Shown piece by piece: positions 1 through 18,549 of a DNA stretch of 64,000 bases. Position 1 is the stretch's first letter; every line of letters begins with the position of its first letter. A model generated the notes under the pieces. The model made no database searches, was not told where the DNA came from, and saw only the letters and a program-made list of their open reading frames with translations. The DNA is from an uncultured Rhizobiaceae group bacterium (GTDB lineage: Bacteria; Pseudomonadota; Alphaproteobacteria; Rhizobiales; Rhizobiaceae), in contig CANMVS010000007.1 of NCBI GenBank assembly GCA_947501445.1, forward strand, positions 186,001 to 250,000, read 5' to 3'. The translations under genes were made by a program, and so were the position numbers.

Positions 1-2
1 GG

Positions 3-533
3 GAACATTACAAAACGGACTGGTCTCATGACTGGGACTACAACAAGGATGATCCCAGGCATCTCTTCAAGCCCTATGGGTATTTACCCGGTCACTTTGT
101 CGAGTGGTCCAAACTGCTGGTCATTTTGAACAGGTATCGACCGCTCGATTGGCTGGTGCCCAAGGCCGAGTTTTTGTTCCGCAAGGCGCTAGACGCCAGC
201 TACGTCAAAGACAGCGGCGCTATCAACTATAGCTTTGCACCGGATGGCGCCATCATGGATACGGACCAGTACTATTGGGTCTTTTCCGAGGCATTTGGCG
301 CTTCAGCTCTATTGGCGCATGCAACCGACAATTCCGAATATTGGCAATGGTACGACCGTTTCTGGACCTATGCCGACGCAAATTTTGTCGATCATCAATA
401 TGGCGGCTGGTATCGCCTGCTCGATCAGAACGGCAACAAATATTCGAATGAAAAAAGCCCGGCATCCAAGACGGATTACCATCCATTGGCTGCCTGTTTC
501 GAAGTTCTCGAGAGCTACAAGAAGGACGTTTAA
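3..533 (+). CDS. AGE-family sugar epimerase/isomerase, C-terminal part
   Basis: The reading frame is open from the left edge of the window and ends at 533, giving 176 visible residues; the start lies outside. The fragment contains GHFVEWSKLL, a region with HLFKPYGYLPGH just before it, and GGWYRLLDQNG near the end. These resemble the (alpha/alpha)6-barrel of N-acylglucosamine 2-epimerase relatives, which isomerise free aldoses and ketoses such as mannose, fructose and glucose or N-acetyl-hexosamines. It lies 16-22 bp upstream of a sugar ABC importer, so an isomerase acting on the imported sugar is likely. The exact substrate cannot be read from the C-terminal half. A TTG at 126 is in frame but falls inside the conserved domain and is not the start. 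Confidence 0.75.
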   Translation, partial: EHYKTDWSHDWDYNKDDPRHLFKPYGYLPGHFVEWSKLLVILNRYRPLDWLVPKAEFLFRKALDASYVKDSGAINYSFAPDGAIMDTDQYYWVFSEAFGASALLAHATDNSEYWQWYDRFWTYADANFVDHQYGGWYRLLDQNGNKYSNEKSPASKTDYHPLAACFEVLESYKKDV

Positions 534-555
534 TCTCTAACTGGAGGAAATGAAG

Positions 556-1542
556 ATGAAAAATCTGACTAAAAACCTTGGCCTTTGTCTGACATTGGTT
601 GCTGGCCTTTCTGCAGCAAACGCGGCGATGGCTCAGGAAGACAATTATCGCTTCACCATTCTCACCCAGACCGGTGTGGACAATACATTCTGGCAGACAA
701 TCAAGCGCGGCATGGACGATGCCTGTGCTGATTACAAAGTCGATTGCCAACTGTTGTTCAATCAGGAAAACGGCAATCTTCAGCAGCACCTGCAAAACCT
801 CGAGACCACCATTGCCCAGGGCGTCGATGGCATCGGTACTGTTATTGTTGAGGACAATCTTTACGACGAAGCAATTGCACGTGCCGTTGATTCCGGCATT
901 CCTGTCGTGACCCTGAATGTGGATGATACGCAAGGTGCCGACGGCAATGCACGTCTTGCATTTATCGGACAGGACCTTTTTCAGGCCGGCTATGAGGTTG
1001 CCAAGGGTCTGCTGGTGGATATGGACAAGACGCAGCCGCAGCACGTGCTTCTTGGTCTGGCGCGACCAGGCGAGTCCTGGGCGGAAGATCGCATTGGTGG
1101 TGCCCGTAAATATCTGGATGAAGCAGCCGCAGATGGCTGGAATTTGACACATGAAACAATTGATTCTGCCAATGATTTGTCAATTACCGGGCAGCGCATC
1201 TGCCAATATGTGCAGGGAAATGACAAAACGACTGCTGTCATCGGGGCCGGTTTCTGGTTTGCGGGCGCTGGCGAGTGCTTGCGGGATCTGGGTATAGAGA
1301 AAGACCAGATCCGCATGGGTGGATTTGATCTGGTGCCGATCCTGCTGGATGAGATGAACAAGGGTTATGTGCATCTTACGGTTGACCAGCAGCCCTATCT
1401 TCAGGGTTATCTGCCAATCCAGCAACTTTACATGATCAAAAAATACGGCCTTTCCGCCTATGATGCAAACACCGGCAAGGCGTTGATCCGCCCCGATGAT
1501 GTGGCAAGCGTCGAGAAATATGTGGGCATGGGCGTTCGCTAG
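556..1542 (+). CDS. Sugar ABC transporter periplasmic binding protein (Peripla_BP_4 type)
   Basis: This 328-residue protein has a signal peptide (basic MKNLTKN, a hydrophobic stretch, cleavage near ANAAMAQ) and then a ribose/xylose-type binding-protein fold: FTILTQTGVDNTFWQTIKRG, GVDGIGTVIVEDNLYDEAI and a late DQQPYLQGYLPI motif typical of the family. It should bind a monosaccharide in the periplasm and deliver it to the permease and ATPase encoded just downstream. GGAGG at 543-547 is 8 nt from the ATG at 556 but only 2 nt from the ATG at 550, so 556 is preferred. Sugar identity is unknown; the neighbouring epimerase and sugar-acid enzymes suggest an aldose or uronic acid. Confidence 0.88.
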   Translation: MKNLTKNLGLCLTLVAGLSAANAAMAQEDNYRFTILTQTGVDNTFWQTIKRGMDDACADYKVDCQLLFNQENGNLQQHLQNLETTIAQGVDGIGTVIVEDNLYDEAIARAVDSGIPVVTLNVDDTQGADGNARLAFIGQDLFQAGYEVAKGLLVDMDKTQPQHVLLGLARPGESWAEDRIGGARKYLDEAAADGWNLTHETIDSANDLSITGQRICQYVQGNDKTTAVIGAGFWFAGAGECLRDLGIEKDQIRMGGFDLVPILLDEMNKGYVHLTVDQQPYLQGYLPIQQLYMIKKYGLSAYDANTGKALIRPDDVASVEKYVGMGVR

Positions 1543-1638
1543 AACGCTGACAGTTGCGCCCGGACAATGGTGCCGGGTCGCAGCTCTCTTTTAACAAAGT
1601 TGGCATTTGTCGGGCATTGCCCTGGCGAGCGGAGCCTT

Positions 1639-2616
1639 ATGATGCGTTTTTCCGAAATTCTTCGATCCAAACCGGAAGCCAGTGCATTCCTGATGCTGGC
1701 GGTGATGACCTTGCTGTTTACTTTTTTGTCACCGGCATTTCTGACCTATAATAATTTTCAGATTGTGCTTCAGCCGATACCGGAAATCGCACTTGTTGCC
1801 ATTGGCGTCACGATCCTGATGATCTCCGGCGAATTTGATTTATCGGTCGGTTCGGTCTTTGCATTATCGCCCATGATCATGGTGTTGGCGCTTGGGGCAG
1901 GCATGCCTTTGGTCCTGGCAATGCTGCTTGGCCTGTGTGCGGCCATAGCCGTGGCCCTTATCAATGCGGCCATCACACTGAGGCTTGGATTGCCCTCCTT
2001 CATTGCGACATTGGGTACATTGTTTATGGCGCGTTCAATTGCCATTGTCGCCGCGGGCGGTTTTCCGCCCGCGTTTCCCCGTGATCTCGATCTGTGGTGG
2101 ATCGTGGGTAAAGTCGATCTGCTGCGTGTATCCGTATTCTGGCTGCTTGCTATCGGCATTCTGCTTGGGATCGTATTGCGAAAATTTGACTTCGGCAGCT
2201 GGATTTTTGCAACCGGTGGAAATCGCCAGGCGGCCCGGGACATGGGCATCAATACCGCCCGTGTGAAGACCATCTGCTTTATTTTGTGTTCCTCACTTGC
2301 AGGGTTTGCCGGCATGATTCAGACATTCCGGATCAAGGCCATGGTGCCGACAATGGGAACCGGCTTTGAGCTGACAGCCATCGCAGCAGCGGTCATTGGC
2401 GGCGCTGCCTTGACGGGTGGCATTGGTTCGGTAACCGGGGCCGTTATTGGTGCGTTGCTTATCGCATTCATCGAAAACATCATCATTTTGATGCGCATTG
2501 ATGCCAATTGGTTCCGTTTCGCTGTTGGCGCGATGATTGTCATTGCCGTTGCCATAAACAAGCTCACCCGGGATTGGGCCGGAATTTCAAAGCAGGTGGA
2601 AGATGACAATGACTGA
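1639..2616 (+). CDS. Sugar ABC transporter permease (RbsC/FrcC type)
   Basis: This integral inner-membrane permease has about 325 residues and roughly ten hydrophobic segments. It carries the family signature ISGEFDLSVGSVFALSPM near the N-terminus and AAVIGGAALTGGIGSVTGA near the C-terminus, both characteristic of ribose/fructose/xylose permeases. The frame stays open upstream to 1567, but GGAG at 1631-1634 sits correctly for the ATGATG at 1639/1642, so the shorter start is chosen. It overlaps the downstream ATPase gene by 14 bp, which implies translational coupling. With the genes on either side it forms an importer resembling rhizobial FrcBCA. Confidence 0.88.
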   Translation: MMRFSEILRSKPEASAFLMLAVMTLLFTFLSPAFLTYNNFQIVLQPIPEIALVAIGVTILMISGEFDLSVGSVFALSPMIMVLALGAGMPLVLAMLLGLCAAIAVALINAAITLRLGLPSFIATLGTLFMARSIAIVAAGGFPPAFPRDLDLWWIVGKVDLLRVSVFWLLAIGILLGIVLRKFDFGSWIFATGGNRQAARDMGINTARVKTICFILCSSLAGFAGMIQTFRIKAMVPTMGTGFELTAIAAAVIGGAALTGGIGSVTGAVIGALLIAFIENIIILMRIDANWFRFAVGAMIVIAVAINKLTRDWAGISKQVEDDND

Positions 2617-3343
2617 CATTCATCTATCCGTTAAGGGGCTTGATAAATGGTACGGGTCGGTTCACGCCCTTCGCAATCTCGATCTGGATATTCCGCGCGG
2701 ACAGGTCGTTGGGCTGATTGGAGACAATGGTGCAGGCAAATCCACGTTTATTCAAATTCTTTCCGGCGTGCACCGGCAAACCAACGGTGAGGTTTTTTTT
2801 GAAGGCACCCCGGTGGATATCAGATCCCCCCGCGATGCTATGAACCTGGGCATTGAGACGATCTATCAGTACACGGCAATGGTGCCCGAGATGTCGATTG
2901 CGCGAAACGTTTTCATTGGCCGCGAAAAGCGAAAATTCGGGCCGCGTGGATTTGGTGTCCTGGACGAAAAGGCCATGGCAAGCCAGGCCTTGCGTGCAAT
3001 TGAAGATGTGGGGCTGCACCTTCGCTCTGCCGAAACGCCGGTGAAGGACCTGTCTGGCGGCCAAAGACAAGGCGTGGCCATTGCCAGGGCCATGCATTTT
3101 CGGGCCAGCATGCTCATTCTTGACGAGCCGACCAACCATCTGGCGGTGAAGGAAATTGGCAAGGTTCTCGACTATGTGCGCCAACTGCGCGACCAGGGAA
3201 TAACGGTAATTTTCATCAGCCATAATCTGCATCACGTGCATGAGGTTACGGACCGTGTTGTTGCCTTTTCGCGCGGCAGCAAGGTCGCTGATGTGAAGGC
3301 CAAAGACACCGATGTAAAGCAGATGATCGATTTGATCACCTAG
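2603..3343 (+). CDS. Sugar ABC transporter ATP-binding protein (single domain)
   Basis: This 246-residue ATPase energises the sugar importer. Walker A is GDNGAGKST (about residues 38-46), the Q-loop is YQYTAMVPEMS, the signature is LSGGQRQGVAIARAM, Walker B is MLILDEPTNHL, and the switch histidine lies in FISHNLHH. It has one nucleotide-binding domain, unlike the two-domain RbsA type, and so resembles FrcA. The start overlaps the end of the permease gene. ATG 2603 is given, but the in-frame ATG at 2609 is better spaced (8 nt) from GGTGGA at 2595-2600. The TAG stop at 3341-3343 is shared with the first bases of a dispersed repeat element (copy at 3341-3434). Confidence 0.9.
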   Translation: MTMTDIHLSVKGLDKWYGSVHALRNLDLDIPRGQVVGLIGDNGAGKSTFIQILSGVHRQTNGEVFFEGTPVDIRSPRDAMNLGIETIYQYTAMVPEMSIARNVFIGREKRKFGPRGFGVLDEKAMASQALRAIEDVGLHLRSAETPVKDLSGGQRQGVAIARAMHFRASMLILDEPTNHLAVKEIGKVLDYVRQLRDQGITVIFISHNLHHVHEVTDRVVAFSRGSKVADVKAKDTDVKQMIDLIT

Positions 3344-3434
3344 ACCGTTTTGTCAGAAACGGGACAACGATGTCGCTTTTGATTTTTTGATGCATTCGGG
3401 TTTTGCCTAATCCGTTGAAACCTGAATTGCTCTA
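3341..3434 (+). repeat. Dispersed two-hairpin element, copy 1 (forward)
   Basis: This is an approximately 94-bp intergenic element that begins at the TAG stop of the ABC ATPase gene. Hairpin 1 is shortened here (CCGTTT, TGTCAG, AAACGG at 3345-3362). Hairpin 2 is TTCGGGTTTTG around 3394-3404 pairing imperfectly with GAAACCTGAA around 3417-3426. The middle segment GACAACGATGTCG and the following GATGCATTC match the copies at 34.6, 57.2 and 60.2 kb. It lies between two co-directional genes and ends about 13 bp before the next start. Confidence 0.8.
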
Positions 3435-3450
3435 ATACGGGAGAATAGTG

Positions 3451-4701
3451 ATGAAGCGGCCAAAGATAGTCGACATTCGTGCAACGACGGTGGCCGTGCC
3501 ATTGGAAGCACCTATTCGCCATTCCAATGGTGCCCATTGGGGTAAATTTGTCCGCACCATCGTTGAGGTGGAGACCGATACCGGCATAATCGGCCTGGGT
3601 GAAATGGGCGGCGGCGGCCAGTCTGCAGAATTGGCATTTGCGGGCTTGAAAGACTATCTGGTCGGCCATGATCCATTTGAGTTTGAGGCCCTGTGGTTCA
3701 AAATCTGCAATCCGACCGCCAGCCTCTACAATAATCGCACGCAGCTCCATGCAGCGATTGAATTTGCCTGTCTGGATATTGTTGGAAAAACGCTTGATAT
3801 CCCGGTTCATGATTTTCTCGGCGGAAAGCTGCGCGATGAAGTCGGCTTCGCCTCCTATCTGTTTTTCCGCTATGACCACAATGAGCGTGGCGGAGAAGTG
3901 CGCACGGGCGAGCAACTGGTGGCAGAAGCCAGGCGAATGAAAGACAGGCACGGCTTCACATCGCACAAATTGAAAGCCGGTGTCTTTCCGCCAGACTATG
4001 AGCTTGACGTCTATCGTGCGATGGCGGAATCGATGCCAGGTGACAGCGTGCGCTATGATCCCAATGCCAGCCACTCGGTCGAAGATGCAATCCGCTTTGG
4101 ACGTGGTATTGAGGACTTGCGCAATGACTATTTTGAAGATCCGACCTGGGGTCTGAACGGTATGCGCCGCGTACGCGAAGCGGTTCGCATTCCGACCGCA
4201 ACCAACACGGTTGTGATAAATTTCGAGCAATTGGCAAGCAATGTGCTGAACCCGTCCTGTGACGTGATCCTGCTGGACACGACATTTTGGGGTGGTATCC
4301 GCCCCTGTATCAAGGCTGCGCAGATATGCGATGCCTTTCAACTGGGTGTGGCGGTGCATTCCTCAGGTGAGCTGGGCATACAGCTTGCAACAATGTTGCA
4401 TCTTGGGGCTGTGCTTCCCAATCTGGTATTTACCGCAGATGCGCACTACCACCACCTGATGGATGACATCATTGTGGGTGGGCTGATGCCCTATAGGAAC
4501 GGTAAAATAAAAGTGCCGGACAAACCCGGCCTCGGCGTTGAACTGGATCGGGACAAATTGCGCCAGTATGCCCAGTATTATCAGGAATTTGGCGGCTATC
4601 CCTATGATCGCGACCCCGGACGAAAGGGGTGGTTTTCTCTTGTTCCCAATACGCGGTGGGCAGATCCGGCGGTTTCGATTGAGGACGGAAAATTGGCCTG
4701 A
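3451..4701 (+). CDS. Enolase-superfamily sugar-acid dehydratase, glucarate-dehydratase type
   Basis: This 416-residue protein has the enolase-superfamily capping domain and TIM barrel. The catalytic set visible is K173-x-K175 (SHKLKAG), metal ligands D203 (RYDPN), E229 (YFEDP) and N252 (TATNTVV), and the H303/D276 dyad ([17 protein letters not shown]). An asparagine as third metal ligand together with KxK is the pattern of the glucarate dehydratase group, so dehydration of an aldarate or aldonate to a 2-keto-3-deoxy acid is expected. Substrate remains open (glucarate, galactarate or another). GGGAG at 3439-3443 favours ATG 3451 over GTG 3448. It sits between the sugar importer and a lactonase. 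Confidence 0.82.
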
Positions 4702-4709
4702 AAGGCACG

Positions 4710-5609
4710 GTGACCATGATCAGTATTTTGGCGCAAACGCGCGACATGTGTGGCGAAAGCCCCATCTGGAATGCCAGGACACAGTCCCTGTGCTGGGTGG
4801 ACATAATAACCAGGAAAATTCGCCGATGTGACATTGCCACAGGCCAGACAAGGTCGTGGACAACAGATGATTTTCCAACAGCCATTGCCTGGCGCCTCGG
4901 CAAGCCCGGCCTTGTTGCCGCATTCGCCGACAGTATTGGCTTTTTTGATTTTGAAACAGGCGAAGTAACACCATTTTGCAAGGCCGATCCCAAACAGGGA
5001 AACCGCAATAATGAGGGCAAATGCGATGCCCGGGGCCGGTTTTGGGTCGGTTCAATGCAAACCAATTTAAATCCCGATGGAACCGACAGGAAAATGGACG
5101 CAAATTGTGGGGCGCTTTTCCGGGTTGACCCGGATGGTGCCACGTCGCAGCACACGCCGCACGACATCGGGCTCTCAAATACGATGGCCTGGAGCGCTGA
5201 CAACAGAACCTTCTATTTTGGTGATACAGCCCGCAATGTGATTTATGCCTACGACTATGACATTGACGATGGCATTATCAGCAACAGACGCATCCATTTT
5301 GAGGGATTTTCCCGCGGCCTGCCGGACGGGTCATGTATTGACAGCGACGGGTGTCTTTGGAATGCCCGGTTTGGCGGTGCCTGTCTTGTCAAAATCACCC
5401 CGCAGGGCAAATTGGATCAGGTCCTGGATCTGCCGGTGTCCAATCCGACAAGTTGTCAATTTGGTGGACAGGATCTGAGCACCCTTTTCATTACATCGGC
5501 GCGCGCCGGGCTGAATTCGCAACAGTTGAGCATCAACGACAAGGAAGGCGCAGTGCTGGTTATCGATACGGCAGTAACCGGCACGCCGACTGAGGCGTTT
5601 GCCGGGTGA
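4710..5609 (+). CDS. SMP-30/gluconolactonase family sugar lactonase
   Basis: This six-bladed propeller hydrolase of about 299 residues opens sugar-acid lactones. The divalent-metal ligands of the family are recognisable: the glutamate in CGESPIWN near the N-terminus, the asparagines in NEGKCDARG and LSNTMAW, and the aspartate in CIDSDGCLWNARFG. It follows the dehydratase by 8 bp, so the two are surely co-transcribed. In an oxidative sugar pathway it would act after the dehydrogenase and before the dehydratase. The start is either GTG 4710 or ATG 4716; AAAGG at 4701-4705 does not settle it. The C-terminus ends soon after a family-typical VTGTPTEAFAG. Confidence 0.85.
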   Translation: MTMISILAQTRDMCGESPIWNARTQSLCWVDIITRKIRRCDIATGQTRSWTTDDFPTAIAWRLGKPGLVAAFADSIGFFDFETGEVTPFCKADPKQGNRNNEGKCDARGRFWVGSMQTNLNPDGTDRKMDANCGALFRVDPDGATSQHTPHDIGLSNTMAWSADNRTFYFGDTARNVIYAYDYDIDDGIISNRRIHFEGFSRGLPDGSCIDSDGCLWNARFGGACLVKITPQGKLDQVLDLPVSNPTSCQFGGQDLSTLFITSARAGLNSQQLSINDKEGAVLVIDTAVTGTPTEAFAG

Positions 5610-5782
5610 AACCGGGCAAATCCCCATGCTATCGTAAACGACAACCGGCAATCCCGTATTGCGTGCCACCGGTCGCATGGCATAAATGATGTGCTCTGCC
5701 GCACCAGCAGTTTAATGAGTTAACAATAAAATGCAGCAGTTTAGGGATGCTGGTGCAACAGCCAAACCATGGGAGATTCAGG

Positions 5783-6550
5783 ATGCGCGTTGCATTGACC
5801 GGAGGATCGACGGGAATTGGCGCCGCTGTTGCAGCCAAAATGAAGGCCAGTGGCGCACATGTGACCGCCTTTGACCTCAGTGAACCCAAAGACAATGTCG
5901 ACCGCTGGATCAGGATAGATCTGAGCGATCCGCTATCGGTTGCTGAAGCCGCACAGGCAGCCGAAGGCCCCTTTGATGCACTGATCAACAATGCCGGGCT
6001 TCCACCGCGTGAAGGCCTTGGCGAGACCATTTTGAAAGTAAACTATTTTGGCCTGAAACAGTTCATGGACGCCATGCTCGACAAACTCAAACCCGGCGCG
6101 GCAATCGTCAACACGGCATCGCGCGCCGGCGCAATGTGGCGCGAAAACATCAATGAGGTCAAAGCGCTCATGGCGCTTGGCAGCATTGACGAATTGCCGG
6201 CTTTCATTGCTGCCCATGATCTCGATCATGTCCGTGCCTATAATCTTTCCAAGGAAGCTGTGGTTGTTTTGACCCAAATCCAGACCGAGGCCCTGATCGC
6301 AAGGAACCTGCGTATCAATTCAGTTAGCCCGGCGGCCGTCTCCACCGGTATTTTGAAGGATTTCGAAACCGCTTTTGGCCCACGGGTGGCCAATGCCATC
6401 GCAAGGGCCGGCCGTCCCGGAACCCCGGACGAAGTTGCCGATGTGATCTGCTTTCTGGCGTCACCCCAAAGTCGCTGGATCAAAGGCCAGGACATCACCA
6501 TCGACGGCGGCATAAGCGCAATGTTCGCATCTGATCAGATTTTGAGCTGA
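5783..6550 (+). CDS. Short-chain dehydrogenase/reductase (SDR)
   Basis: This 255-residue classical SDR has the NAD(P)-binding TGGSTGIG at residues 6-13, NNAG, a catalytic serine in NTASRAG, and the YNLSK active-site Tyr/Lys. The C-terminal end has WIKGQDITIDGG, typical of the 3-alpha-HSD-like subgroup. GGGAGA at 5771-5776 places the start at ATG 5783, not the upstream in-frame start at 5747. It lies 173 bp after the lactonase and may be the sugar dehydrogenase that feeds it, but SDRs are promiscuous and it could act on another alcohol. D41 after the beta-2 strand (AFDLSEP) suggests NAD preference. Confidence 0.8.
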   Translation: MRVALTGGSTGIGAAVAAKMKASGAHVTAFDLSEPKDNVDRWIRIDLSDPLSVAEAAQAAEGPFDALINNAGLPPREGLGETILKVNYFGLKQFMDAMLDKLKPGAAIVNTASRAGAMWRENINEVKALMALGSIDELPAFIAAHDLDHVRAYNLSKEAVVVLTQIQTEALIARNLRINSVSPAAVSTGILKDFETAFGPRVANAIARAGRPGTPDEVADVICFLASPQSRWIKGQDITIDGGISAMFASDQILS

Positions 6551-6654
6551 ATTGGTTTTCGGTGCCCTCCAGAGATGGTTTTTCAAACCGGATAGTTTGG
6601 GTCCCTAGTGGCCACCCACAATTGTCTTCAAACAACGTGGCAATTCCCAGCGGT

Positions 6655-6918
6655 TTACCAAGTGGAGCCCGGTTCAGCAATGAAAGGTCCTGACCCTGCG
6701 ATTTTTTCCAACACCTCAGGAGACAATTCAACAGCACAGTCCGGTGCGATTGGTATCACAAGATGAACCACGCCATCAGTGTTTTCAACGACATTGACTT
6801 TTGCGCCGTCCGTAACGCTGACACCGACATCAGCCAAAGCGGTATGCGGGTCATGCATTAGCTTGGTTTTGTATTTCGGATCGATCCAGGCGCGGGCGAT
6901 GGCTTTTGCTACAGTCAT
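6655..6918 (-). CDS. NHLP-type RiPP precursor peptide (nitrile-hydratase-alpha-like leader), copy 1
   Basis: This 87-residue peptide starts AKAIARAWIDPKYKTKL and continues DPHTALADVGVSV, VNVVENTDGVVHLVIP and ELSPEVLEKIAGSG. This layout is that of the NHLP leader family, ribosomal natural-product precursors related to the N-terminal part of the nitrile hydratase alpha subunit. It lacks the metal-binding CxLCSC motif of the enzyme. The likely core follows EKIAGS: ten to eleven residues with no cysteine, ending PGSTW. It shares about 43 of its first 72 residues with the next gene upstream. The start ATG is preceded by GGAG. No cyclodehydratase, lanthionine synthetase, radical SAM enzyme or C39 exporter is present in the window. 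Confidence 0.72.
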   Translation of the reverse strand: MTVAKAIARAWIDPKYKTKLMHDPHTALADVGVSVTDGAKVNVVENTDGVVHLVIPIAPDCAVELSPEVLEKIAGSGPFIAEPGSTW

Positions 6919-6949
6919 TATATATCTCCTCGTGTCAGATGTGCCATTG

Positions 6950-7093
6950 TCAGCTTATGCCAGGACAAGCGCACTGGACACTACAACATACTTTGGCGAA
7001 GTGGCAGCTGATTTGACAAAAGAGGAGAGCAACTGTCCGCGGCGTGGCACATGGGAGCTTGGCTTTGTAGTCAGAGCGGAACCTTGTGTTCAT
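6950..7093 (-). other. Possible overlapping cysteine-rich small ORF downstream of NHLP copy 2
   Basis: A 47-codon frame starts at ATG 7093-7091 inside the end of NHLP copy 2, overlapping its stop, and ends at 6950. Its last 33 residues contain seven cysteines (motifs LPCATP, FCQISC, KVCCSVQCACPG). It also contains SDYKAKL, which resembles the leader motif ADYKAKM of copy 2. No Shine-Dalgarno is well placed, so expression would need coupling or a frameshift. It may equally be a chance frame over a decayed third precursor. Recorded because cysteine-rich tails are what many NHLP cores look like. Confidence 0.25.
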
Positions 7094-7337
7094 CCATAGA
7101 ACGAAACGCTCCCGCCGCGACCTTCTCCAGCTCCTCGGCAGATAGTTCACCGGCGTCGCCTGGCGCAACCGGCAGCACCAAATGCTTGGTTTCGGCCGTG
7201 TCCTCCACCACCTTCACGGTGGTGCCGGCGGGAACTTCGACACCGGCCTCGGCTAGCGCCGTATGGGGGTCGCTCAACATCTTGGCCTTGTAGTCTGCGT
7301 CGCTCCAGGCGCGGGCGATTGATTTAGCTATGGTCAC
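7071..7337 (-). CDS. NHLP-type RiPP precursor peptide, copy 2
   Basis: This 88-residue peptide is a paralogue of the downstream gene. It has SIARAWSDADYKAKM, DPHTALAEAGVEVP, VKVVEDTAETKHLVLPV and ELSAEELEKVAAG. The candidate core after VAAG is AFRSMDEHKVPL, with no cysteine and no resemblance to the core of copy 1. Conserved leader with unrelated short tail is the behaviour expected of RiPP precursors. It starts at GTG 7337 with AGGAGAGA about 5 nt upstream. The two genes are 152 bp apart and in the same direction. An alternative is a stand-alone stress-type small protein of this fold with no modification. Confidence 0.7.
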   Translation of the reverse strand: MTIAKSIARAWSDADYKAKMLSDPHTALAEAGVEVPAGTTVKVVEDTAETKHLVLPVAPGDAGELSAEELEKVAAGAFRSMDEHKVPL

Positions 7338-7567
7338 GGTCTCTCTCCTTGTCTTAGGTATCTTGTAACTTCAATCTGGGCCGATTTTTGAATGTGGTGC
7401 AATCATGCGCTTCGATGTTTAAAGCAACCCTATCCCAATGTTTGAGTAATTTCTGAGTTAACCTGTTTGTGATTGCATTCTCATGCAGCAGCGTCCATTG
7501 CGATGCTTTGTTTGGCTACAAATTTGGATCTGGTGGCGAGAAAAATCAATCATACCAAAACGACAGT

Positions 7568-7644
7568 TGGTGATCCCGGCGCGATTCGAACGCGCGACCC
7601 TCAGATTAGGAATCTGATGCTCTATCCTGCTGAGCTACGGGACC
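7568..7644 (-). tRNA. tRNA-Arg (anticodon CCU)
   Basis: The 77-nt minus-strand sequence folds as a standard cloverleaf. The acceptor arms GGTCCCG and CGGGATC pair with one G-U. The D-arm is TAGCTCAGCAGGATAGAGC. The anticodon stem is TCAGA/TCTGA around the loop TTCCTAA, with the anticodon CCT at plus-strand 7608-7610. The T-arm has GCGCGTTCGAATCGCGC. CCA is encoded at the 3' end. No integrase or attachment-site repeat is seen next to it. Confidence 0.95.
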
Positions 7645-7716
7645 ATAACAGTCAGGCATAGTGCCCTATACCTTGGTCTATCGCATCCATACAACAACTA
7701 TCGTGAACATCAAGTG

Positions 7717-9333
7717 CTAAAGCGCTTCACCTCTGGCAGCCAGCAGGTCGCTCAGCCAGTCCGGGTCCATTTCCGGCACGGATGACAGCAGCAACTGGGT
7801 GTAATCGGGGTGCGGCGGAGACAGGATTTCGCTTTTCAGTCCCTGTTCGACGACCTTGCCCTGGAACATCACCACGATTTCATCGGAGATGGCTTTTACC
7901 GTGGCGATATCGTGGGTGATGAACATATAGGTGATGTTGAACTGTTTTTGCAGCCGCAGCAGGAGTTTCAGGATATCCTCCTGAACAATCTGATCGAGCG
8001 CCGAGGTGATTTCGTCGCAGATTATGATTTCCGGATCGGCGGCAAGCGCGCGGGCAATGCAGATACGCTGTTTTTGCCCACCGGAAAGTTCGCCGGGCAA
8101 ACGGTCCAGATAACTGGCGTCAAGTTCGATCATCTCCAGCAGTTCAATGACACGGTTTTCACGGGCCTTGCCTTTGAGACCAAGGTAGAATTCCAGCGGT
8201 CGACCAATAATTTCCTCAACGCTCTGCCGCGGGTTCATGGCGGTATCGGCCATTTGATAAATCATCTGGATGCGATGAAGCTGGTCCTTGTTGCGCTGTT
8301 TGAGTGCGCCCGGCAGCGGCTCTCCGTTGAATAAAACCTCACCCTTGCTGGGAACCAGCAGACCGGTGATTACACGTGCCGATGTCGATTTGCCCGAGCC
8401 CGATTCGCCGACAACCGCAACAGTGCTGCCCCTTGGCACTTTAATGTTCACATTTTCGAGCACCCGCACATCGCCATAGGCAGCGTCGATATTGCGCATT
8501 TCGATGATTATGTCTTCGCCTTTGACTTCTGGTTTTTCCAGTTCGCGCACCGACCACAGCGATTTCGTATAGTCCATTTTCGGCGTTTCCAGCATCTGCC
8601 GTGTCGGCGCTTCTTCAACCTCTTCGCCATAGCGAAGCACCTTGATGAAGTCGGCCATCTGGGCAACGACTGCCAGGTCATGGGTGATGTAAATCGCCGC
8701 GGCATGGAACGTCTCGACGATGTTGCGCATGGCGGCCAGTACTTCCACCTGCGTTGTTACATCAAGCGCCGTTGTCGGTTCGTCAAAGATGATCAGGTCG
8801 GGCCTTGGCGACATAGCCATGGCTGTCATGACGCGCTGAAGCTGACCGCCCGAGACCTGGTGCGGATAACGCTCGCCAATGTGTTCGGGATCGGGCAGGC
8901 GCAGGCTCTGATAGAGGGTGCGGGCATCTGCGCGGGCTTCTTTTTCATCGTGAAGTTTTGAACGTACAGTGGCCTCAACCGTTTGCTCGATCAAACGGTG
9001 CGCCGGATTGAAGGCGGCAGCGGCTGATTGCGCCACATAGGCTATGCGTGTGCCCCACAGTTTGCGCTTTTCGCTTTCGCGTGCCGCCATCAGGTCCATG
9101 CCGTCGAATTTGATCGACCCGCTGCTGATTTTGCAGCCGGGACGGGCAAAGCCCATGGCAGCCAGGCCAAAGGAAGATTTGCCGGCGCCCGATTCACCAA
9201 TCAGCCCCATGACTTCACCGCGATGCAATGTCAGGTCGACACCCTTGATAATCTCGTGCCAGCGGTCGTCGCTGAACCCATCGATGCGGATATCGCGCAT
9301 CTCAAGAAGAACGTCCTTGTCTTTAGTGCTCAT
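7717..9333 (-). CDS. Peptide/oligopeptide ABC importer, fused double ATPase
   Basis: This 538-residue protein joins two Dpp/Opp-type ATPase domains. Domain 1 has GESGAGKSS, VSGGQLQRVMTAMAM and LIIFDEPTTALD; domain 2 has GESGSGKSTSARV, LSGGQKQRICIARAL and IIICDEITSALD. Both sites therefore look catalytically complete, and it replaces separate DppD and DppF proteins. The longer frame to 9375 is unlikely: ATG 9333 (MSTKDKD) overlaps the upstream permease stop at 9323 by 11 bp, as expected in an operon. It couples ATP hydrolysis to uptake of peptides or another ligand bound by the divergently encoded binding protein. Confidence 0.9.
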   Translation of the reverse strand: MSTKDKDVLLEMRDIRIDGFSDDRWHEIIKGVDLTLHRGEVMGLIGESGAGKSSFGLAAMGFARPGCKISSGSIKFDGMDLMAARESEKRKLWGTRIAYVAQSAAAAFNPAHRLIEQTVEATVRSKLHDEKEARADARTLYQSLRLPDPEHIGERYPHQVSGGQLQRVMTAMAMSPRPDLIIFDEPTTALDVTTQVEVLAAMRNIVETFHAAAIYITHDLAVVAQMADFIKVLRYGEEVEEAPTRQMLETPKMDYTKSLWSVRELEKPEVKGEDIIIEMRNIDAAYGDVRVLENVNIKVPRGSTVAVVGESGSGKSTSARVITGLLVPSKGEVLFNGEPLPGALKQRNKDQLHRIQMIYQMADTAMNPRQSVEEIIGRPLEFYLGLKGKARENRVIELLEMIELDASYLDRLPGELSGGQKQRICIARALAADPEIIICDEITSALDQIVQEDILKLLLRLQKQFNITYMFITHDIATVKAISDEIVVMFQGKVVEQGLKSEILSPPHPDYTQLLLSSVPEMDPDWLSDLLAARGEAL

Positions 9334-10243
9334 CTCGCAACCCGCTTGTCTTGTGTAAAAACCAGTCGACGACAAAGTTCACCGCAACTGTCAGCAATGC
9401 GATGGCGCCAGCAGGCAACAGCGGTGTCATGGCCGCTTTCATGTCATATTTGGCAAACTGGATAAGGGATGCATTTTCACGCACCATGGAACCCCAGTCG
9501 GCAGACGGTGGCTGAATGCCAACGCCGAGGAAAGAGAGGGCGGCAATGGTCAAAAACACAAAGCAGAACCGCAGGCCGAATTCAGCGACCAGCGGTGGCA
9601 TGATATTGGGCAAAATCTCCCGGCGCATGATCCAGCCGAGCTTTTCCCCGCGCAACCGGGCAGCCTCCACATAGTCCATCACAACGACATTGATTGCCAC
9701 CGAGCGTGTCAGGCGGAATACCCGGGTCGAATCCAGAACGGCAATAATGCAGATGAGGCTGGTCACATTCGATCCGAAAATCGACAGCAGCATAAGCGCA
9801 AAAATCAGGCTTGGAATGGCCATCAGCGCATCAACTGTCCGGCTCAAAACCTGATCGAGCCATCCGCGGCTGATACTGGCTGCCAGTGCAAGACCACCGC
9901 CAATCACAAAGGACAGTAGCGTTGTTACCAGCGCAATGCCCATTGTATTGCGCCCGCCATAAACAAGGCGGGTGAATATATCGCGGCCGATCTGATCGGT
10001 GCCAAATATATGGGCGCTGCTCCATGGTTCATAGGGCGCCGGAAAAATCTGCGCCTCGCCATAGGGTGCAATGATTGGCGCCAGCAATGCGACCACACAA
10101 TAAAAGGCGATGACGATCAGGCCGAACCATGCGGACAGGGGCGCCTTGCGCAGGCCATTCCATATGCGCTGCAAAAAGGTTCGCCTGATACGCGGGTTGC
10201 TTTTTTCCGAGGCTGCGGAATAGGTGTCTGGTTGCTGGGTCAT
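9323..10243 (-). CDS. Peptide-type ABC importer permease (DppC family)
   Basis: This 306-residue inner-membrane permease has an N-terminal cytoplasmic segment, a first membrane helix around residues 36-56, the family periplasmic segment GTDQIGRDIFTRLVYGGR, and the EAA-like loop EAARLRGEKLGWIMRREILP that contacts the ATPase. It pairs with the DppB-type permease encoded just upstream, whose stop overlaps its ATG by 4 bp. Substrate class is set by the binding protein and is not certain to be peptides. Confidence 0.9.
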   Translation of the reverse strand: MTQQPDTYSAASEKSNPRIRRTFLQRIWNGLRKAPLSAWFGLIVIAFYCVVALLAPIIAPYGEAQIFPAPYEPWSSAHIFGTDQIGRDIFTRLVYGGRNTMGIALVTTLLSFVIGGGLALAASISRGWLDQVLSRTVDALMAIPSLIFALMLLSIFGSNVTSLICIIAVLDSTRVFRLTRSVAINVVVMDYVEAARLRGEKLGWIMRREILPNIMPPLVAEFGLRFCFVFLTIAALSFLGVGIQPPSADWGSMVRENASLIQFAKYDMKAAMTPLLPAGAIALLTVAVNFVVDWFLHKTSGLRDEH

Positions 10244-11220
10244 CGTGGGTGCAACAATCTGGGATTGGTGACCGTTCCGATTATATCGGCCAACAGGTTG
10301 AGAATGATGTAGGTGGCCGCAAAAATCAGAGCACAGGCCTGCACAACGGGAATATCGCGGGTGGTCACTGCATCCACCATCAACTGGCCAATGCCGGGAT
10401 AGACAAAGACAACCTCAACCACCACAACACCAACAACCAGATAGGCCAGATTGAAGGCAATAACGGTGGCTATGGGCGACCAGGCATTGGGCAGCGCGTG
10501 TTTGAGAATGACCTCCGAGCGTGATGCCCCCTTCAATTGCGCCATTTCAATATAGGGGCTTGCCAGCAGATTGATGATGGCTGCACGGGTCATGCGCATC
10601 ATATGTGCCACGATAACCAGCGTCAGGGTGAGCGCGGGCAGGGCCATGCGGTAAACGCGTTCAAGAAACGGGGTGGTGTCGTCTATATTCGCCAGGGATG
10701 GAAAGATTGGATAAAGCGACGACAAAAACAGGATCAGCAGATAGGCGACAAAAAACTCCGGAAAAGAAATCGCTGTCAATGTTGTCGCATTGACGGTGCG
10801 GTCGTAAATCGAATTGCGATAGAGTGCTGTGGTGATGCCAAGAAACAGCGCCAGTGGCACCGCGATGACAGCGGTCATGCCCGCCAGAAAAAGCGTATTC
10901 CACAGACGCGGCGCAACCAGCTCTGCCACGGAGCGTGACCGGTCTACACCCGAAGCGGCTCTGCCCGAAAAGGATGTGCCAAGATCGCCTGTCGCAACAG
11001 CGCCAATCCATTCGAAGTAACGAATATACGGCGGCTTATCGAGCCCAAGTTCCTCGCGGAAAGCTGCAACGGATTCCTCAGTGGCAGCCTGTCCTAATAC
11101 CGCCTCACCAAAATCGCCCGGCAAGAGCTCAAGAGCACTGAATATTATCACCGAAACAACAAACAGGGTGAACAGTCCAAACCCCAGCCGTTGCAGGATC
11201 GTCGCCACGATCGGATGCAC
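10240..11220 (-). CDS. Peptide-type ABC importer permease (DppB family)
   Basis: This 326-residue permease has a hydrophobic first helix (LGFGLFTLFVVSVIIFSAL), the family LPGDF motif, and the ATPase-coupling loop MAQLKGASRSEVILKHALPN near residue 240. It is the first gene of the minus-strand importer operon, and its start faces the divergent gene of the binding protein across about 365 bp. A Dpp/Opp-type pore with the next gene is certain by family; whether the ligand is a peptide, a glycoside or an opine-like compound is not. Confidence 0.9.
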   Translation of the reverse strand: MHPIVATILQRLGFGLFTLFVVSVIIFSALELLPGDFGEAVLGQAATEESVAAFREELGLDKPPYIRYFEWIGAVATGDLGTSFSGRAASGVDRSRSVAELVAPRLWNTLFLAGMTAVIAVPLALFLGITTALYRNSIYDRTVNATTLTAISFPEFFVAYLLILFLSSLYPIFPSLANIDDTTPFLERVYRMALPALTLTLVIVAHMMRMTRAAIINLLASPYIEMAQLKGASRSEVILKHALPNAWSPIATVIAFNLAYLVVGVVVVEVVFVYPGIGQLMVDAVTTRDIPVVQACALIFAATYIILNLLADIIGTVTNPRLLHPR

Positions 11221-11585
11221 GCATTCCCCTCCGTATTTGTTCCGGGTATGCCCGGTTAAATTGTGACCTCATCGCTTGTTTGCGACATAGGATTGTTACC
11301 ATCAGGTTATGCGCCAGACGGGCAACATGTAAAGCCGTCAAAGCCTGAAAACTGCAATTGGGGCAATAACAGCCTGTCTGAAAGCATTTTAAGGAGGCTG
11401 ACATAGTAATTTTGCATGGATTGGTGCGTTTCTGGAAGAATTATTATTGTACATGCGGATTGCATCAGCGGCATATTATGGGCAGATTGTCGTATCGCCG
11501 ACGGGCCAATGCACGAAAAACCTCACAGGGTTTTCAACGGACCGGACAAATCGGCAGACTGACCAAGCATGACGGGAGGAAAATC
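11221..11585. promoter_or_regulatory. Divergent promoter region of the Dpp-type transporter
   Basis: This 365-bp gene-free stretch lies between the permease operon (minus) and the binding-protein gene (plus) and must hold both promoters. A short hairpin CCGGG-TATG-CCCGG is present at 11242-11255 next to the permease start. The open frame from 11412 into the binding-protein gene has no signal-peptide character before the ATG at 11586, so I treat it as leader sequence. No clear operator was recognised. Confidence 0.4.
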
Positions 11586-13187
11586 ATGCGAGAAAAAACG
11601 ATTAAAAATCAACAAAGTAAACTGCGCTTCGGACAAATCAACCGACGTCAATTTATCATGTCGGCCCTGGCTGCCGGGGCGACCCTTACAACATCTTTTG
11701 CCATGGCTGACAAAGCAATGGCGATGACACCCAAAAAAGGTGGCCGTCTTCGTCAGGGCATGGGTTACGGGTCAACCACCGATACACTTGATCCAAGCAC
11801 CTTTGAAAACGGCTATATGCAGGCGCACGGCTACCTGTTCGGCAACAATTTGACCGAAGTGAACAATGAAGGCGTATTGGTGCCGGAACTGGCTGAGAGT
11901 TTTGAATCTGCCGATGCCAAAACCTGGGTCTTCAAACTGCGCAAAGGTGTTGAATTTCACAATGGCCAGTCGCTGAGCGCTGACGATGTGATAGCAACGA
12001 TGAATTACCATCGTGCCGAAGGTTCAAAATCTCCAGCCAAGGGTATTCTTTCCGGCATCAAGGACCTGCGCAAGGATGGCGATGATACGGTTGTATTTGA
12101 ACTTGAAAGCGGTAATGCCGATTTCCCTTACATTGTCAGTGACTATCATCTGATCATCATGCCGTCCAAGGACGGAACGGTTGATGCGGCAAGCGGCATC
12201 GGTACCGGTGGCTACGCCATCGAGAATTTTGAACCGGGTGTGCGCACGCTGACCAAACGAAACGCGAATTACTTCAAGGAAGGTCGGGCGCATTTTGATG
12301 AGGTCGAGTTGATCTCGATTATTGACCTGACGGCGCGTCAGAACGCCATCATGAATGGTGACGTGGACATTATTGACAATGTCGATCCGAAAACCGTGAA
12401 CCTGTTGGCACGGGTACCAACCCTGTCCATTCTGGAAACGACCGGAACGCAGCACTACACATTCCCGATGCGATTGGATCATGAGCCCTTTGGCAATTAT
12501 GATCTGCGCATGGCGATCAAATCGGCGATCAAACGTCAGGAACTGGTCGACAAAATCCTGCTTGGACACGGCGCAATCGGCAACGATCATCCGATTTCGG
12601 TTGCCAACCGGTTCCACAACAATGATCTGGAACAACGCGAGTTTGATCCGGAAAAAGCAGCCTTCCATTACAAGAAGTCCGGCCACTCCGGTCCCATTCA
12701 GCTGTCATCTTCGGATGCGGCTTTTGCAGGCGCTGTTGATGCCGCACAGCTTGTTGCAGCTTCTGCCAAGGAAGCGGGCATCGATGTGGAAATCGTGCGC
12801 GAACCGAAAGACGGTTACTGGTCGAATGTCTGGAACAAGAAGGGCTGGTGTGCGTGTTACTGGGGCGGACGTCCAACGGAAGACTGGATGTTCTCGGCAG
12901 CCTACACCAATGATACCGAATGGAACGATACAGCCTGGAAAGGCACAGATGCATCGAAGAAATTCAATAATGTCGTTGTTGAGGCACGCTCAGAACTGGA
13001 TGAGGGCAAGCGTCGCGGGCTTTACTATGAAGCCCAGGCTCTCATAAATGACGATGGCGGTGCCATTGTACCGATGTGGGCAAACTACATTCATGCGCAT
13101 TCCAAGAAACTGGGCCACGATGATCAGGTTGCTGCCAACTGGATCAATGATGGCAACAAGGTCGGCGAACGCTGGTGGTTCTCGTAA
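11586..13187 (+). CDS. Extracellular solute-binding protein family 5 (peptide-type), Tat signal
   Basis: This 533-residue periplasmic binding protein carries a twin-arginine signal (NRRQFIMSALAAG, about residues 22-34) after a long basic N-terminus, with cleavage near SFAMADKAMAM. The mature part has the SBP_bac_5 landmarks LAESFESADAKTWVFKLRKG, VEFHNGQSLSADDV and the C-terminal YYEAQALINDDGGAIVPM. It delivers ligand to the divergently transcribed permeases and double ATPase. GGGAGG at 11574-11579 fixes the start at 11586. Tat export implies folding in the cytoplasm, unusual but well known for this family in alphaproteobacteria. A strong terminator follows. Confidence 0.9.
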   Translation: MREKTIKNQQSKLRFGQINRRQFIMSALAAGATLTTSFAMADKAMAMTPKKGGRLRQGMGYGSTTDTLDPSTFENGYMQAHGYLFGNNLTEVNNEGVLVPELAESFESADAKTWVFKLRKGVEFHNGQSLSADDVIATMNYHRAEGSKSPAKGILSGIKDLRKDGDDTVVFELESGNADFPYIVSDYHLIIMPSKDGTVDAASGIGTGGYAIENFEPGVRTLTKRNANYFKEGRAHFDEVELISIIDLTARQNAIMNGDVDIIDNVDPKTVNLLARVPTLSILETTGTQHYTFPMRLDHEPFGNYDLRMAIKSAIKRQELVDKILLGHGAIGNDHPISVANRFHNNDLEQREFDPEKAAFHYKKSGHSGPIQLSSSDAAFAGAVDAAQLVAASAKEAGIDVEIVREPKDGYWSNVWNKKGWCACYWGGRPTEDWMFSAAYTNDTEWNDTAWKGTDASKKFNNVVVEARSELDEGKRRGLYYEAQALINDDGGAIVPMWANYIHAHSKKLGHDDQVAANWINDGNKVGERWWFS

Positions 13188-13213
13188 GTCAGTCTTCAAG
13201 GTGAATTCTGGTC

Positions 13214-13244
13214 GGCGGCTGAAGTTTCAGCCGCCGATTTTTTT
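13214..13244 (+). terminator. Rho-independent terminator of the binding-protein gene
   Basis: A perfect 10-bp inverted repeat GGCGGCTGAA / TTCAGCCGCC with only GT between the arms (13214-13235, effective loop of 4) is followed by a run of seven T at 13238-13244. It lies 27 bp after the stop of the binding-protein gene. Confidence 0.92.
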
Positions 13245-13332
13245 GTCATATGTTATGAAAGGCCTTCCAGGACGGTGTCGGTCCATTTCATACGAACCGT
13301 TTCGTCATAGACCTGCAAAGCCATGGAGCCAT

Positions 13333-13965
13333 TCAGTCATAAATAGGCGATTTCAGATAGCGGCTTGCTTCCTCGGTGACGGTCGCATCGAAAATGCGGG
13401 TGTAGAAAGCCGCGTTCAGCTTTGCTGCAGTTTCGGGAAAATCCTGCAGGGCAAAATTTGTCGCATTTTCAATTGTATCAAATGCGTCCATGCCACCGAG
13501 CGTATTGGTATGCAGCCCGCTTAACCATGTCTTGCTCAACAATCCCGGTTGACGTTTTAACTCATGGTTACGTTCGTGCCACTTGAATTGCTCAAATGGT
13601 CTGTTGACCTGCACTTCCGTGTAGACAAATGCGCCTGGTTTTTTCTGCAGTTTTCCGCCGAAATGCGGCGAGCCCATCTCTGTGCTGGCATCAGCAGCAA
13701 TTGCTGCATCAAACAGGCGGGTTGTCTGGGCGACACCAAGCCCTCTGGCTTCGTTCGGAAAATAACCGGTGACAAATTCCTGTGCGCTTTCAGTGCTGTC
13801 AAACGTATAGAACCCGCCAACTGAATTATTGTTGATCCCCGCAAGCCAGGTTTTGCTTATAAAGCCCGGTTGCTGGCGTATGGCATCGCTTATGGCTTTC
13901 CATGGGGCCTGGTCAAAAGGGATCGAGATTTGCAGTTCCGTATAGACAAATGCCGGGTTTGACAT
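13333..13965 (-). CDS. YdhR-like protein with two tandem copies of the domain
   Basis: This 210-residue soluble protein is made of two homologous halves, about residues 1-100 and 108-210. Both halves have FVYTE(L/V)Q near the start, (PWK/FKW) then QPG(F/L)(I/L)SKTWL(A/S)G, a glycine pair and a final (A/T)R(L/I)FDA. The motifs match the putative mono-oxygenase YdhR group, ferredoxin-like alpha/beta proteins normally about 100 residues long and acting as dimers; the duplication would give a pseudo-dimer in one chain. The start is ATG 13965 with AGGAAA upstream; the longer frame to 14136 runs through the divergent promoter. It probably belongs to the regulon of the divergent HxlR repressor. Function is inferred only. 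Confidence 0.7.
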   Translation of the reverse strand: MSNPAFVYTELQISIPFDQAPWKAISDAIRQQPGFISKTWLAGINNNSVGGFYTFDSTESAQEFVTGYFPNEARGLGVAQTTRLFDAAIAADASTEMGSPHFGGKLQKKPGAFVYTEVQVNRPFEQFKWHERNHELKRQPGLLSKTWLSGLHTNTLGGMDAFDTIENATNFALQDFPETAAKLNAAFYTRIFDATVTEEASRYLKSPIYD

Positions 13966-14004
13966 GAGGTTTCCTTTCGGGATTGAGCGGTTGTTTTCAC
14001 GAAT

Positions 14005-14052
14005 TGCATTTTGCAATACGTAGATATTTAGAATTACGTATTGCAAAATGCA
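14005..14052. promoter_or_regulatory. Perfect 18-bp inverted repeat, probable HxlR operator
   Basis: The left arm TGCATTTTGCAATACGTA (14005-14022) and the right arm TACGTATTGCAAAATGCA (14035-14052) are exact reverse complements separated by a 12-bp A/T-rich spacer. It lies midway between the divergent YdhR-like gene (start 13965) and the HxlR gene (start 14076), where both promoters must be. Each arm also holds smaller palindromes (TTGCAA and TACGTA). Confidence 0.75.
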
Positions 14053-14075
14053 AGGTGATTTTATATTTTCAGGAA

Positions 14076-14486
14076 ATGAAAGCAGAACACAAAAAAAGAG
14101 AGACCGGATGTCCCGTCGCCTTTGGTCTTGATACATTCGGGGATAGATGGAGCCTGCTGATCATCCGAGAGATCATGCTGCGCGGCAAAAGAACCTACAG
14201 TGAATTTCTTGAAGCTGATGAAGCGATTGCCACGAATATTCTCATCGCCCGGCTGAAGCATCTGGAAGCGGAAGGCATCATCAAAAAATCCCGCGACCCG
14301 GAAAACAGACGCAGCTTCATTTATGCACTGACAGCCAAAGGGCGGGATCTGGCACCGATCATGCTGGAAATCATCCTGTGGAGCGGTGAATATGATGACC
14401 GACCCTTCGCCATGAAGGATATCCGTGACAAAATCCGCCATGATCGCGCGGGATTTGAGGCGGATCTGCGCGCTGGAAAACACTGA
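14076..14486 (+). CDS. HxlR-family winged-helix transcriptional regulator
   Basis: This 136-residue protein has the HxlR family layout: GCPVAFGLDTFGDRWSLLIIRE at the N-terminus with the conserved cysteine at residue 12, RTYSEF, then NILIARLKHLEAEGII and the wing DPENRRSFIYALTAKGRDL. HxlR proteins bind palindromes as dimers and often sense redox or electrophilic compounds through the N-terminal cysteine. It is divergent from the YdhR-like gene and starts 24 bp from the perfect inverted repeat at 14005-14052, so self-regulation and control of the divergent gene are likely. The start at ATG 14076 has a weak, close AGGA. Confidence 0.88.
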   Translation: MKAEHKKRETGCPVAFGLDTFGDRWSLLIIREIMLRGKRTYSEFLEADEAIATNILIARLKHLEAEGIIKKSRDPENRRSFIYALTAKGRDLAPIMLEIILWSGEYDDRPFAMKDIRDKIRHDRAGFEADLRAGKH

Positions 14487-14582
14487 GGTAAAATAAATCT
14501 GGCAACGGTGTCCAATAACGCCCGGGCCAATCGTTTTAGGGTGTCGGGACCATCAACCGGCTCAACCAATCAGAAGGACGCC

Positions 14583-18543: not shown

Positions 18544-18549
18544 TAATTA

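What the first reader, a model, noticed from the sequence alone, without database searches (positions are those of the whole stretch)
6655..7337. Tandem orphan NHLP-leader RiPP precursors without maturation genes
Seen: two small adjacent genes with leaders identical at about 43 of 72 residues by eye, followed by short unrelated tails (PFIAEPGSTW-type versus AFRSMDEHKVPL). Known: the NHLP leader family resembles the N-terminus of the nitrile hydratase alpha subunit and is used for ribosomal natural products. Inferred: they are precursors of an undescribed product, matured by enzymes encoded elsewhere or by a new enzyme type. The only transporter next to them is an uptake system, not a peptidase-exporter. 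Both cores lack cysteine, so cyclodehydration or lanthionine on Cys would not fit; Ser/Thr or other chemistry would be needed.
Basis: partly seen in the sequence, partly recalled or inferred. Interest (0 to 1): 0.8.

Follow-up and report, generated by a model that had tools for sequence, protein, structure and literature searches.

The report
Scattered NHLP peptide precursors, exporter elsewhere
Two small neighbouring genes encode precursors of very short secreted peptides; the dedicated cutting-and-export machine they probably use lies elsewhere in the same genome, and what, if anything, chemically modifies the peptides is still unknown.

Summary
Both ORFs (window 6655-6918 and 7071-7337, minus strand) score over the curated cut-off of the NHLP leader family (66.3 and 75.9 bits; cut-off 50.9). 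They are not alone: two more sit 6 kb beyond the window. "Without maturation genes" is true only locally. The genome encodes a complete NHLM export system, three proteins over curated cut-offs, on another contig. In the closest relative found, an alphaproteobacterial MAG, peptides of the same clade flank an NHLM exporter whose peptidase-transporter groups with this genome's at 100/100. Leaders are conserved (mean identity 65%, dN/dS 0.06-0.35); the 8-27-residue tails are unrelated and contain no cysteine. These are real NHLP precursors, most likely cleaved and exported in trans by the NHLM system. The modifying enzyme is undecided: no LanC-like domain; one cyclodehydratase/SagB pair is a candidate; the peptides may also be unmodified. 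Haft et al. 2010 already described NHLPs lying far from their export genes, so this is a variant of a known kind.

The parts
7071..7337 (-). NHLP precursor 2, 88 aa, GTG start; leader ends ...LSAEELEKVAAG
   Evidence: TIGR03793 75.9 bits over cut-off 50.9; SD AAGGAG at about 7345-7350
7110..7337 (-). leader of precursor 2 (76 residues, NHase-alpha-like, retains L(X)4L)
7074..7109 (-). predicted core AFRSMDEHKVPL (12 residues, no Cys) after an Ala-Gly site
   Evidence: cleavage site inferred
6655..6918 (-). NHLP precursor 1, 87 aa, ATG start; leader ends ...LSPEVLEKIAGS
   Evidence: TIGR03793 66.3 bits over cut-off 50.9; SD GAGGAG at about 6926-6931
6691..6918 (-). leader of precursor 1 (76 residues)
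6658..6690 (-). predicted core GPFIAEPGSTW (11 residues, no Cys) after a Gly-Ser site (or PFIAEPGSTW after Gly-Ser-Gly)
   Evidence: cleavage site inferred
7568..7644 (-). tRNA-Arg(CCT), the only tRNA in the window, 230 nt upstream of precursor 2
   Evidence: ARAGORN

Best explanation
The two genes, with two sister genes about 62 kb away on the same contig, encode substrates of a dispersed NHLP/NHLM peptide secretion system. The roughly 76-residue leader resembles the nitrile hydratase alpha subunit and works as the export address. The C39 peptidase of the NHLM transporter encoded on contig C1 cuts after the Gly-Gly-like site. It then exports an 11-13-residue Cys-free peptide with the second ABC transporter and the HlyD-type protein. 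Shown: family membership, conserved leader with divergent tails, presence of the full exporter, and a linked arrangement with the sister exporter in another alphaproteobacterium. Inferred: that this exporter handles these peptides, the cleavage sites, and secretion. Unknown: whether the cores are modified, and what the peptides do.
For: Four NHLPs in the genome, all over the TIGR03793 cut-off. Exporter genes over curated cut-offs: TIGR03794 197.2 (cut-off 156.2), TIGR03796 899.2 (853.3), TIGR03797 750.7 (709.4). The exporter is rare: TIGR03796 over cut-off in 8 of 346 family genomes (at most 3 candidates scored a genome). NHLPs are over cut-off in 3 of 346, G000, G034, G220, with G001 just under at 50.5 bits. 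Overlap is 2 of 3 over cut-off, or 3 of 4 with G001; hypergeometric p 0.0014 and 3e-5, or 0.04 and 0.001 with the focal genome left out. The closest relatives found, L076 and L088 of MAG G348, place same-clade NHLPs directly before the HlyD gene of an NHLM operon and one after it; its three exporter proteins also pass the cut-offs (189.9, 906.4, 800.1 bits). By bit score all three exporter proteins of G000 match those of G348 best among 11 loci compared (51%, 50%, 32% identity), grouping 100/100 for the peptidase-transporter. Leaders: mean identity 65% over 36 pairs of 9 peptides, dN/dS 0.06-0.35 in the 33 pairs not saturated; tails score no better than shuffles (4.75 against 5.6, sd 3.6).
Against: No physical linkage in this genome between peptides and exporter. 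The predicted sites of the window pair are AG and GS, not GG (two sister peptides have GG). The exporter may serve other cargo, such as a convergent ORF beside it (L027:2449-2781, whose sequence contains LSELENIVAGG). NHLP genome G034 has no TIGR03796 hit over cut-off, and six of the eight exporter genomes (G001 among them, just under) have no NHLP over cut-off. No expression data. The promoter scan of 6500-7750 found nothing.
Confidence: 0.7

Rival explanations
1. Dispersed TOMM: the peptides are modified in trans by the fused E1-like/YcaO cyclodehydratase and SagB dehydrogenase on contig C5 (oxazol(in)es on Ser/Thr), then exported by NHLM. This adds a maturation step to the best explanation and is compatible with it.
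For: G000 is the only one of 346 family genomes with TIGR03882 over cut-off (at most 10 candidates scored a genome). The locus has TIGR03882 (88.6 bits, cut-off 36.9), a TIGR03604-like YcaO domain (212.4 bits, below its cut-off of 219.25), SagB and an AurF-like protein. A Nostoc plasmid holds NHLP, Nif11 precursors, the same kind of fusion, SagB and NHLM together. Thalassospira has a sub-cut-off NHLP match (33.8 bits) upstream of its fusion. All 4 G000 leaders keep L(X)4L, which is needed for YcaO engagement of an NHLP in PMC12455567 (passages).
Against: No Cys and 1-3 Ser/Thr per core in the four G000 peptides. L(X)4L is also in NHLPs that the studied YcaO does not accept. G348 has the same peptide clade, but the one YcaO found there stands next to a TfuA gene. 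The C5 locus has its own candidate 48-aa precursor (no relative in plasmids).
Confidence: 0.2
2. Thioamidation by the YcaO-TfuA pair on contig C10 before NHLM export.
For: A YcaO-TfuA pair is present in G000, G348, G001 and G220; in G348 it lies about 32 kb from the peptide array on the same contig.
Against: TfuA is common: 104 of 346 family genomes; 3 of 4 NHLP genomes has p 0.08. The pair is followed in G000, G348 and G001 by a conserved gene of its own (407, 440 and 467 aa; 40-44% identity), likelier to be its partner.
Confidence: 0.07
3. Relic or stand-alone small proteins: degraded nitrile-hydratase-like genes or small structural proteins, neither cleaved nor exported.
For: Two real nitrile hydratase gene pairs are in the genome; the peptides sit among unrelated genes; no promoter match.
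Against: All nine intact clade members compared stay open with a 70-residue leader core without indels and dN/dS well under 1, all over the NHLP cut-off. Tails are divergent, not conserved. Linked to an exporter in G348.
Confidence: 0.1

Closest known systems
NHLP leader peptide family (TIGR03793) of Haft, Basu and Mitchell 2010 (PMC2887384; abstract and passages seen)
   Same: Leader over the curated cut-off, NHase-alpha-like, hypervariable tail, presence of the NHLM exporter. [quoted passage not shown]
   Different: Cores of 11-13 residues here (8-27 in the clade), no Cys, few Ser/Thr; [quoted passage not shown] The window pair has AG/GS instead of GG.
NHLM export system (TIGR03794/03796/03797)
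   Same: All three components over curated cut-offs on contig C1.
   Different: In this genome it lies on a different contig from the peptides; in MAG G348 it is linked to them.
NHLP/Nif11 TOMM clusters with fused docking-cyclodehydratase (Pelotomaculum in PMC2887384, passage; Nostoc sp. C057 plasmid)
   Same: Fused TIGR03882-YcaO plus SagB, NHLM exporter and NHLPs occur in one genome.
   Different: Here all three are on separate contigs and the cores lack Cys. Not shown to act on these peptides.
LanM-associated NHLPs (same-genus genome G001, contig C51)
   Same: Tandem NHLPs and an NHLM exporter.
   Different: G001 has LanM beside them and Cys in the cores; G000 has no LanC-like domain. G001 leaders are only distantly related (44-51 bits to a clade model built from seven of the nine peptides, against 118-148 for the clade).

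Membership tests
NHLP leader peptide family (TIGR03793) | Score over the curated cut-off | tested here: met
   66.3 and 75.9 bits, cut-off 50.9; sisters 66.2 and 70.7
NHLP leader peptide family (TIGR03793) | No NHase metal-binding CxxCSC motif | tested here: met
   No CxxCSC in any of the nine sequences printed; the motif is named in PMC4603692 (passage)
NHLP leader peptide family (TIGR03793) | Gly-Gly cleavage motif at the end of the leader | tested here: inconclusive
   Window pair AG and GS; the other two G000 peptides GG. That C39 enzymes tolerate such variants is recalled, not tested.
NHLP leader peptide family (TIGR03793) | Hypervariable core after a conserved leader | tested here: met
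   leader 65% identical, tails no better than shuffles
NHLP leader peptide family (TIGR03793) | Core rich in Cys/Ser/Thr | tested here: not met
   0 Cys and 1-3 Ser/Thr per core in G000; described as typical, not part of the curated cut-off
NHLM export system | HlyD-type, C39-ABC and second ABC proteins, each over cut-off | tested here: met
   (contig C1)
NHLM export system | Handles these peptides | not testable with these tools
   Inferred from the linked sister system in G348 and co-occurrence
TOMM / linear azole peptides | Leader-binding cyclodehydratase and dehydrogenase in the genome | tested here: met
   (contig C5); TIGR03882 and SagB over cut-off, TIGR03604 just under; not linked to the peptides
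TOMM / linear azole peptides | Azol(in)e in the product | not testable with these tools
   Needs mass spectrometry
Class II lanthipeptide | LanM (LanC-like domain) in the genome | tested here: not met
   PF05147: no match in G000 (E <= 0.001, draft genome 99.18% complete)
Class II lanthipeptide | Cys in the core | tested here: not met
   0 of 9 tails contain Cys

The most novel reading that the evidence does not exclude
The clade has turned the NHLP leader into a pure export tag: the NHLM transporter releases many different short, unmodified, Cys-free peptides. It would be a two-part secretion system without a modifying enzyme, in which one exporter serves small gene arrays scattered over the genome, several beside tRNA genes; the peptides may be signals or microcin-like agents.
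Probability: 0.3. Interest if true: 0.6.

Novelty: new variant of a known kind. Interest (0 to 1): 0.4.

Why it matters
Precursors are usually found by their place beside modification enzymes, so a system with its parts on three contigs is easily missed. If the peptides are secreted unmodified, a leader studied as a docking platform for RiPP enzymes would also serve as a general export address. That makes a proposal of Haft et al. 2010, that the transport system rather than the modifying enzyme keeps the leader conserved, testable in a genome with one NHLM exporter and few candidate modifiers.

Tried and rejected
(1) Reading the pair as truly orphan: rejected, the genome holds two further NHLPs and a full NHLM exporter. 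(2) LanM maturation: rejected for G000. (3) The second C39 protein, on C5, as exporter: it is a type I secretion HlyB-like protein (1032 bits to TIGR01846; 447 to TIGR03796, cut-off 853). (4) TfuA co-occurrence as a link: rejected, baseline 104 of 346. (5) Relatives in viral contigs: none confirmed of 68 pattern matches. (6) Structure: AlphaFold2 from 9 sequences gave mean pLDDT 54, pTM 0.36, helices 3-30 and 67-80 only; I did not run a fold search on it. (7) Integration scars: no exact match of 12 bases or more to the 3'-terminal 40 bases of the three neighbouring tRNAs within window 1-20000, L009 or L088. (8) A home for the 48-aa ORF of the C5 locus: no match in plasmids. (9) Literature: NHLM plus bacteriocin gave 1 unrelated paper; NHLP plus orphan, precursor and Alphaproteobacteria gave 0; three of NHLP, without maturation, unmodified, exporter gave 1, phazolicin (listing only); the first search held 57 papers, 30 listed. 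Genome searches score only the best candidates of a first look (for instance 3 a genome, 10), so counts of absence carry that limit.

Full report
What is there. The window is part of contig C7 (186001-250000) of a 6.8-Mb draft genome in 110 contigs. On the minus strand, 6655-6918 and 7071-7337 encode 87 and 88 residues. Both pass the curated cut-off of TIGR03793, NHLP leader peptide family RiPP precursor: 66.3 and 75.9 bits against 50.9. Pfam sees them as nitrile hydratase alpha fragments (46 and 56 bits). They agree at 42 of the first 72 residues, 43 of 74, and each has a ribosome-binding-like sequence. A genome-wide search gave 8 listed matches. Four pass the cut-off: this pair and a second tandem pair at C7:255624-256207, 6 kb beyond the window's right end. 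The other four lie in two real nitrile hydratase alpha genes, each next to a beta subunit. No control genome of 14 passed the cut-off.

The surroundings. Upstream lie an SMP-30-type lactonase and a short-chain dehydrogenase; on the other side a tRNA-Arg(CCT), then an oligopeptide-type importer. The second pair lies between a tRNA-Leu and a DUF998 membrane protein. I saw no RiPP enzyme next to either pair; the nearest genes were checked with Pfam, the rest of the listed ORFs by eye.

The missing exporter is elsewhere. A search for the C39 peptidase domain found two proteins. One, on contig C5, is a type I secretion protein of the HlyB kind. The other, on contig C1, forms a gene set with two neighbours, and all three pass curated NHLM cut-offs: TIGR03794 197.2 against 156.2, TIGR03796 899.2 against 853.3, TIGR03797 750.7 against 709.4. 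Haft et al. 2010 found these three transporter families by their co-occurrence with NHLPs (PMC2887384; abstract and passages). That paper also states that such precursors can lie far from their modification and export genes.

Is exporter and peptide a real pair? In 346 genomes of the family, TIGR03796 is over cut-off in 8. NHLPs are over cut-off in 3 (G000, G034, G220); G001, of the same genus, is just below at 50.5 bits. The overlap is 2 of 3, or 3 of 4 with G001: p 0.0014 and 3e-5. With the focal genome left out, p is 0.04 and 0.001. G034 is the exception: an NHLP (58 bits) without an exporter over cut-off. Six of the eight exporter genomes have no NHLP over cut-off, G001 among them, so the exporter has other cargo as well.

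The strongest link comes from outside this sample. One, MAG Alphaproteobacteria PL23b_bin.38 (G348), holds three tandem peptides at a contig end (L076), with a fourth cut off. The same MAG has an NHLM exporter, its three proteins over cut-off (906.4, 189.9 and 800.1 bits). Its contig begins with a cut peptide gene, then a whole one of the same clade, then HlyD, peptidase-transporter and second transporter, then another peptide gene (L088). The two contig ends share 87 identical bases. A near copy further on (86 of 87) shows that this is repeat sequence, so adjacency is likely but not proved. By bit score all three exporter proteins of G000 match G348 better than any of the 10 other loci compared (51, 50 and 32% identity). 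The peptidase-transporters of the two group at 100/100 in a tree of 11 rows, although G001 belongs to the same genus as the focal genome. Peptide clade and exporter clade therefore agree in two genomes, one with linkage and one without.

The peptides. Nine intact clade members (four from G000, five from G348) all pass the NHLP cut-off. Over a 70-residue leader core without indels, mean identity is 65% in 36 pairs; dN/dS is 0.06-0.35 in the 33 pairs not saturated. Tails are 8-27 residues long, score no better than shuffled tails, and contain no Cys. The leaders end in GG in six of nine, AG in two and GS in one.

What modifies them? G000 has no LanC-like domain. It has two YcaO proteins. One is paired with TfuA; TfuA is common (104 of 346), so its presence says little, and the pair has a conserved gene of its own behind it in G000, G348 and G001. 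The other is a fusion of a TIGR03882 leader-binding domain and YcaO, followed by SagB and an AurF-like protein. G000 is the only genome of 346 with TIGR03882 over cut-off. Relatives of this fusion sit with an NHLP in Nostoc sp. C057 and with a sub-cut-off NHLP match in Thalassospira. An NHLP-like peptide in Bradyrhizobium sp. 155 is my reading by eye; it hits no family. In Methylovirgula I saw no NHLP-like ORF before the fusion. The four G000 leaders keep L(X)4L, which PMC12455567 shows to be needed, though not sufficient, for an NHLP to engage a YcaO (passages). Against it: the cores lack Cys, the C5 locus has a candidate precursor of its own, and in G348, with the same peptide clade, the one YcaO found stands next to TfuA. 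I give this rival 0.2. The simplest reading of G348 is that some of these peptides are exported unmodified: there I saw peptides and exporter, but no modifying enzyme, in the 24 kb read (L076, L088; partly Pfam, partly by eye). That is my most novel reading, at 0.3; it rests on one MAG and a short stretch.

Verdict. Real NHLP precursors and a dispersed system; the exporter is found, the modification is open. New variant of a known kind. Interest 0.4.

Noticed in passing
window 7568-7644; L009:7797-7881; L088:8264-8340: Three of four NHLP sites read in G000 and G348 lie within 0.8 kb of a tRNA gene, always on the side of its 3' end. No repeat of the tRNA end was found. PMC4603692 notes tRNA genes beside TOMM clusters (passage).
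   Followed up: partly
L027:2449-2781 and L088:6828-7058: In both sister NHLM loci a short convergent ORF follows the second transporter gene and carries a Gly-Gly-like site (LSELENIVAGG, MSQADLRNVIGG) with a Cys-free tail; no family match. Possibly a second cargo type, or chance.
   Followed up: partly
L025:4967-9945: TOMM locus: 48-aa candidate precursor, leader-binding/YcaO fusion, SagB dehydrogenase, AurF-like protein (PF11583), with a transposase-like ORF (by eye) near the contig end.
   Followed up: partly
L074:54-12446: Same-genus genome G001: two tandem NHLPs, LanM, HlyD-like protein (by eye) and both NHLM transporters, an NHLP lanthipeptide cluster.
   Followed up: yes
L070:7829-10105: Genome G220 has six NHLP-like peptides in tandem a few kb from its NHLM exporter, with one further copy each on C10 and C40, and no LanC-like domain.
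   Followed up: no
L069:8245-8514: Genome G034: an NHLP (58 bits) among biosynthesis-like genes (by eye), with no NHLM exporter over cut-off, no YcaO and no LanC-like domain found.
   Followed up: no
L083:9228-10297: Tistrella mobilis pTM2: three tandem annotated NHLP precursors next to a cyclic peptide export ABC transporter and siderophore genes.
   Followed up: no
L100:6323-6652: Bradyrhizobium sp. 155 plasmid: unannotated NHLP-like peptide (by eye; no family hit) ending in a stretch of mostly Cys and Pro, upstream of a TOMM fusion gene.
   Followed up: no
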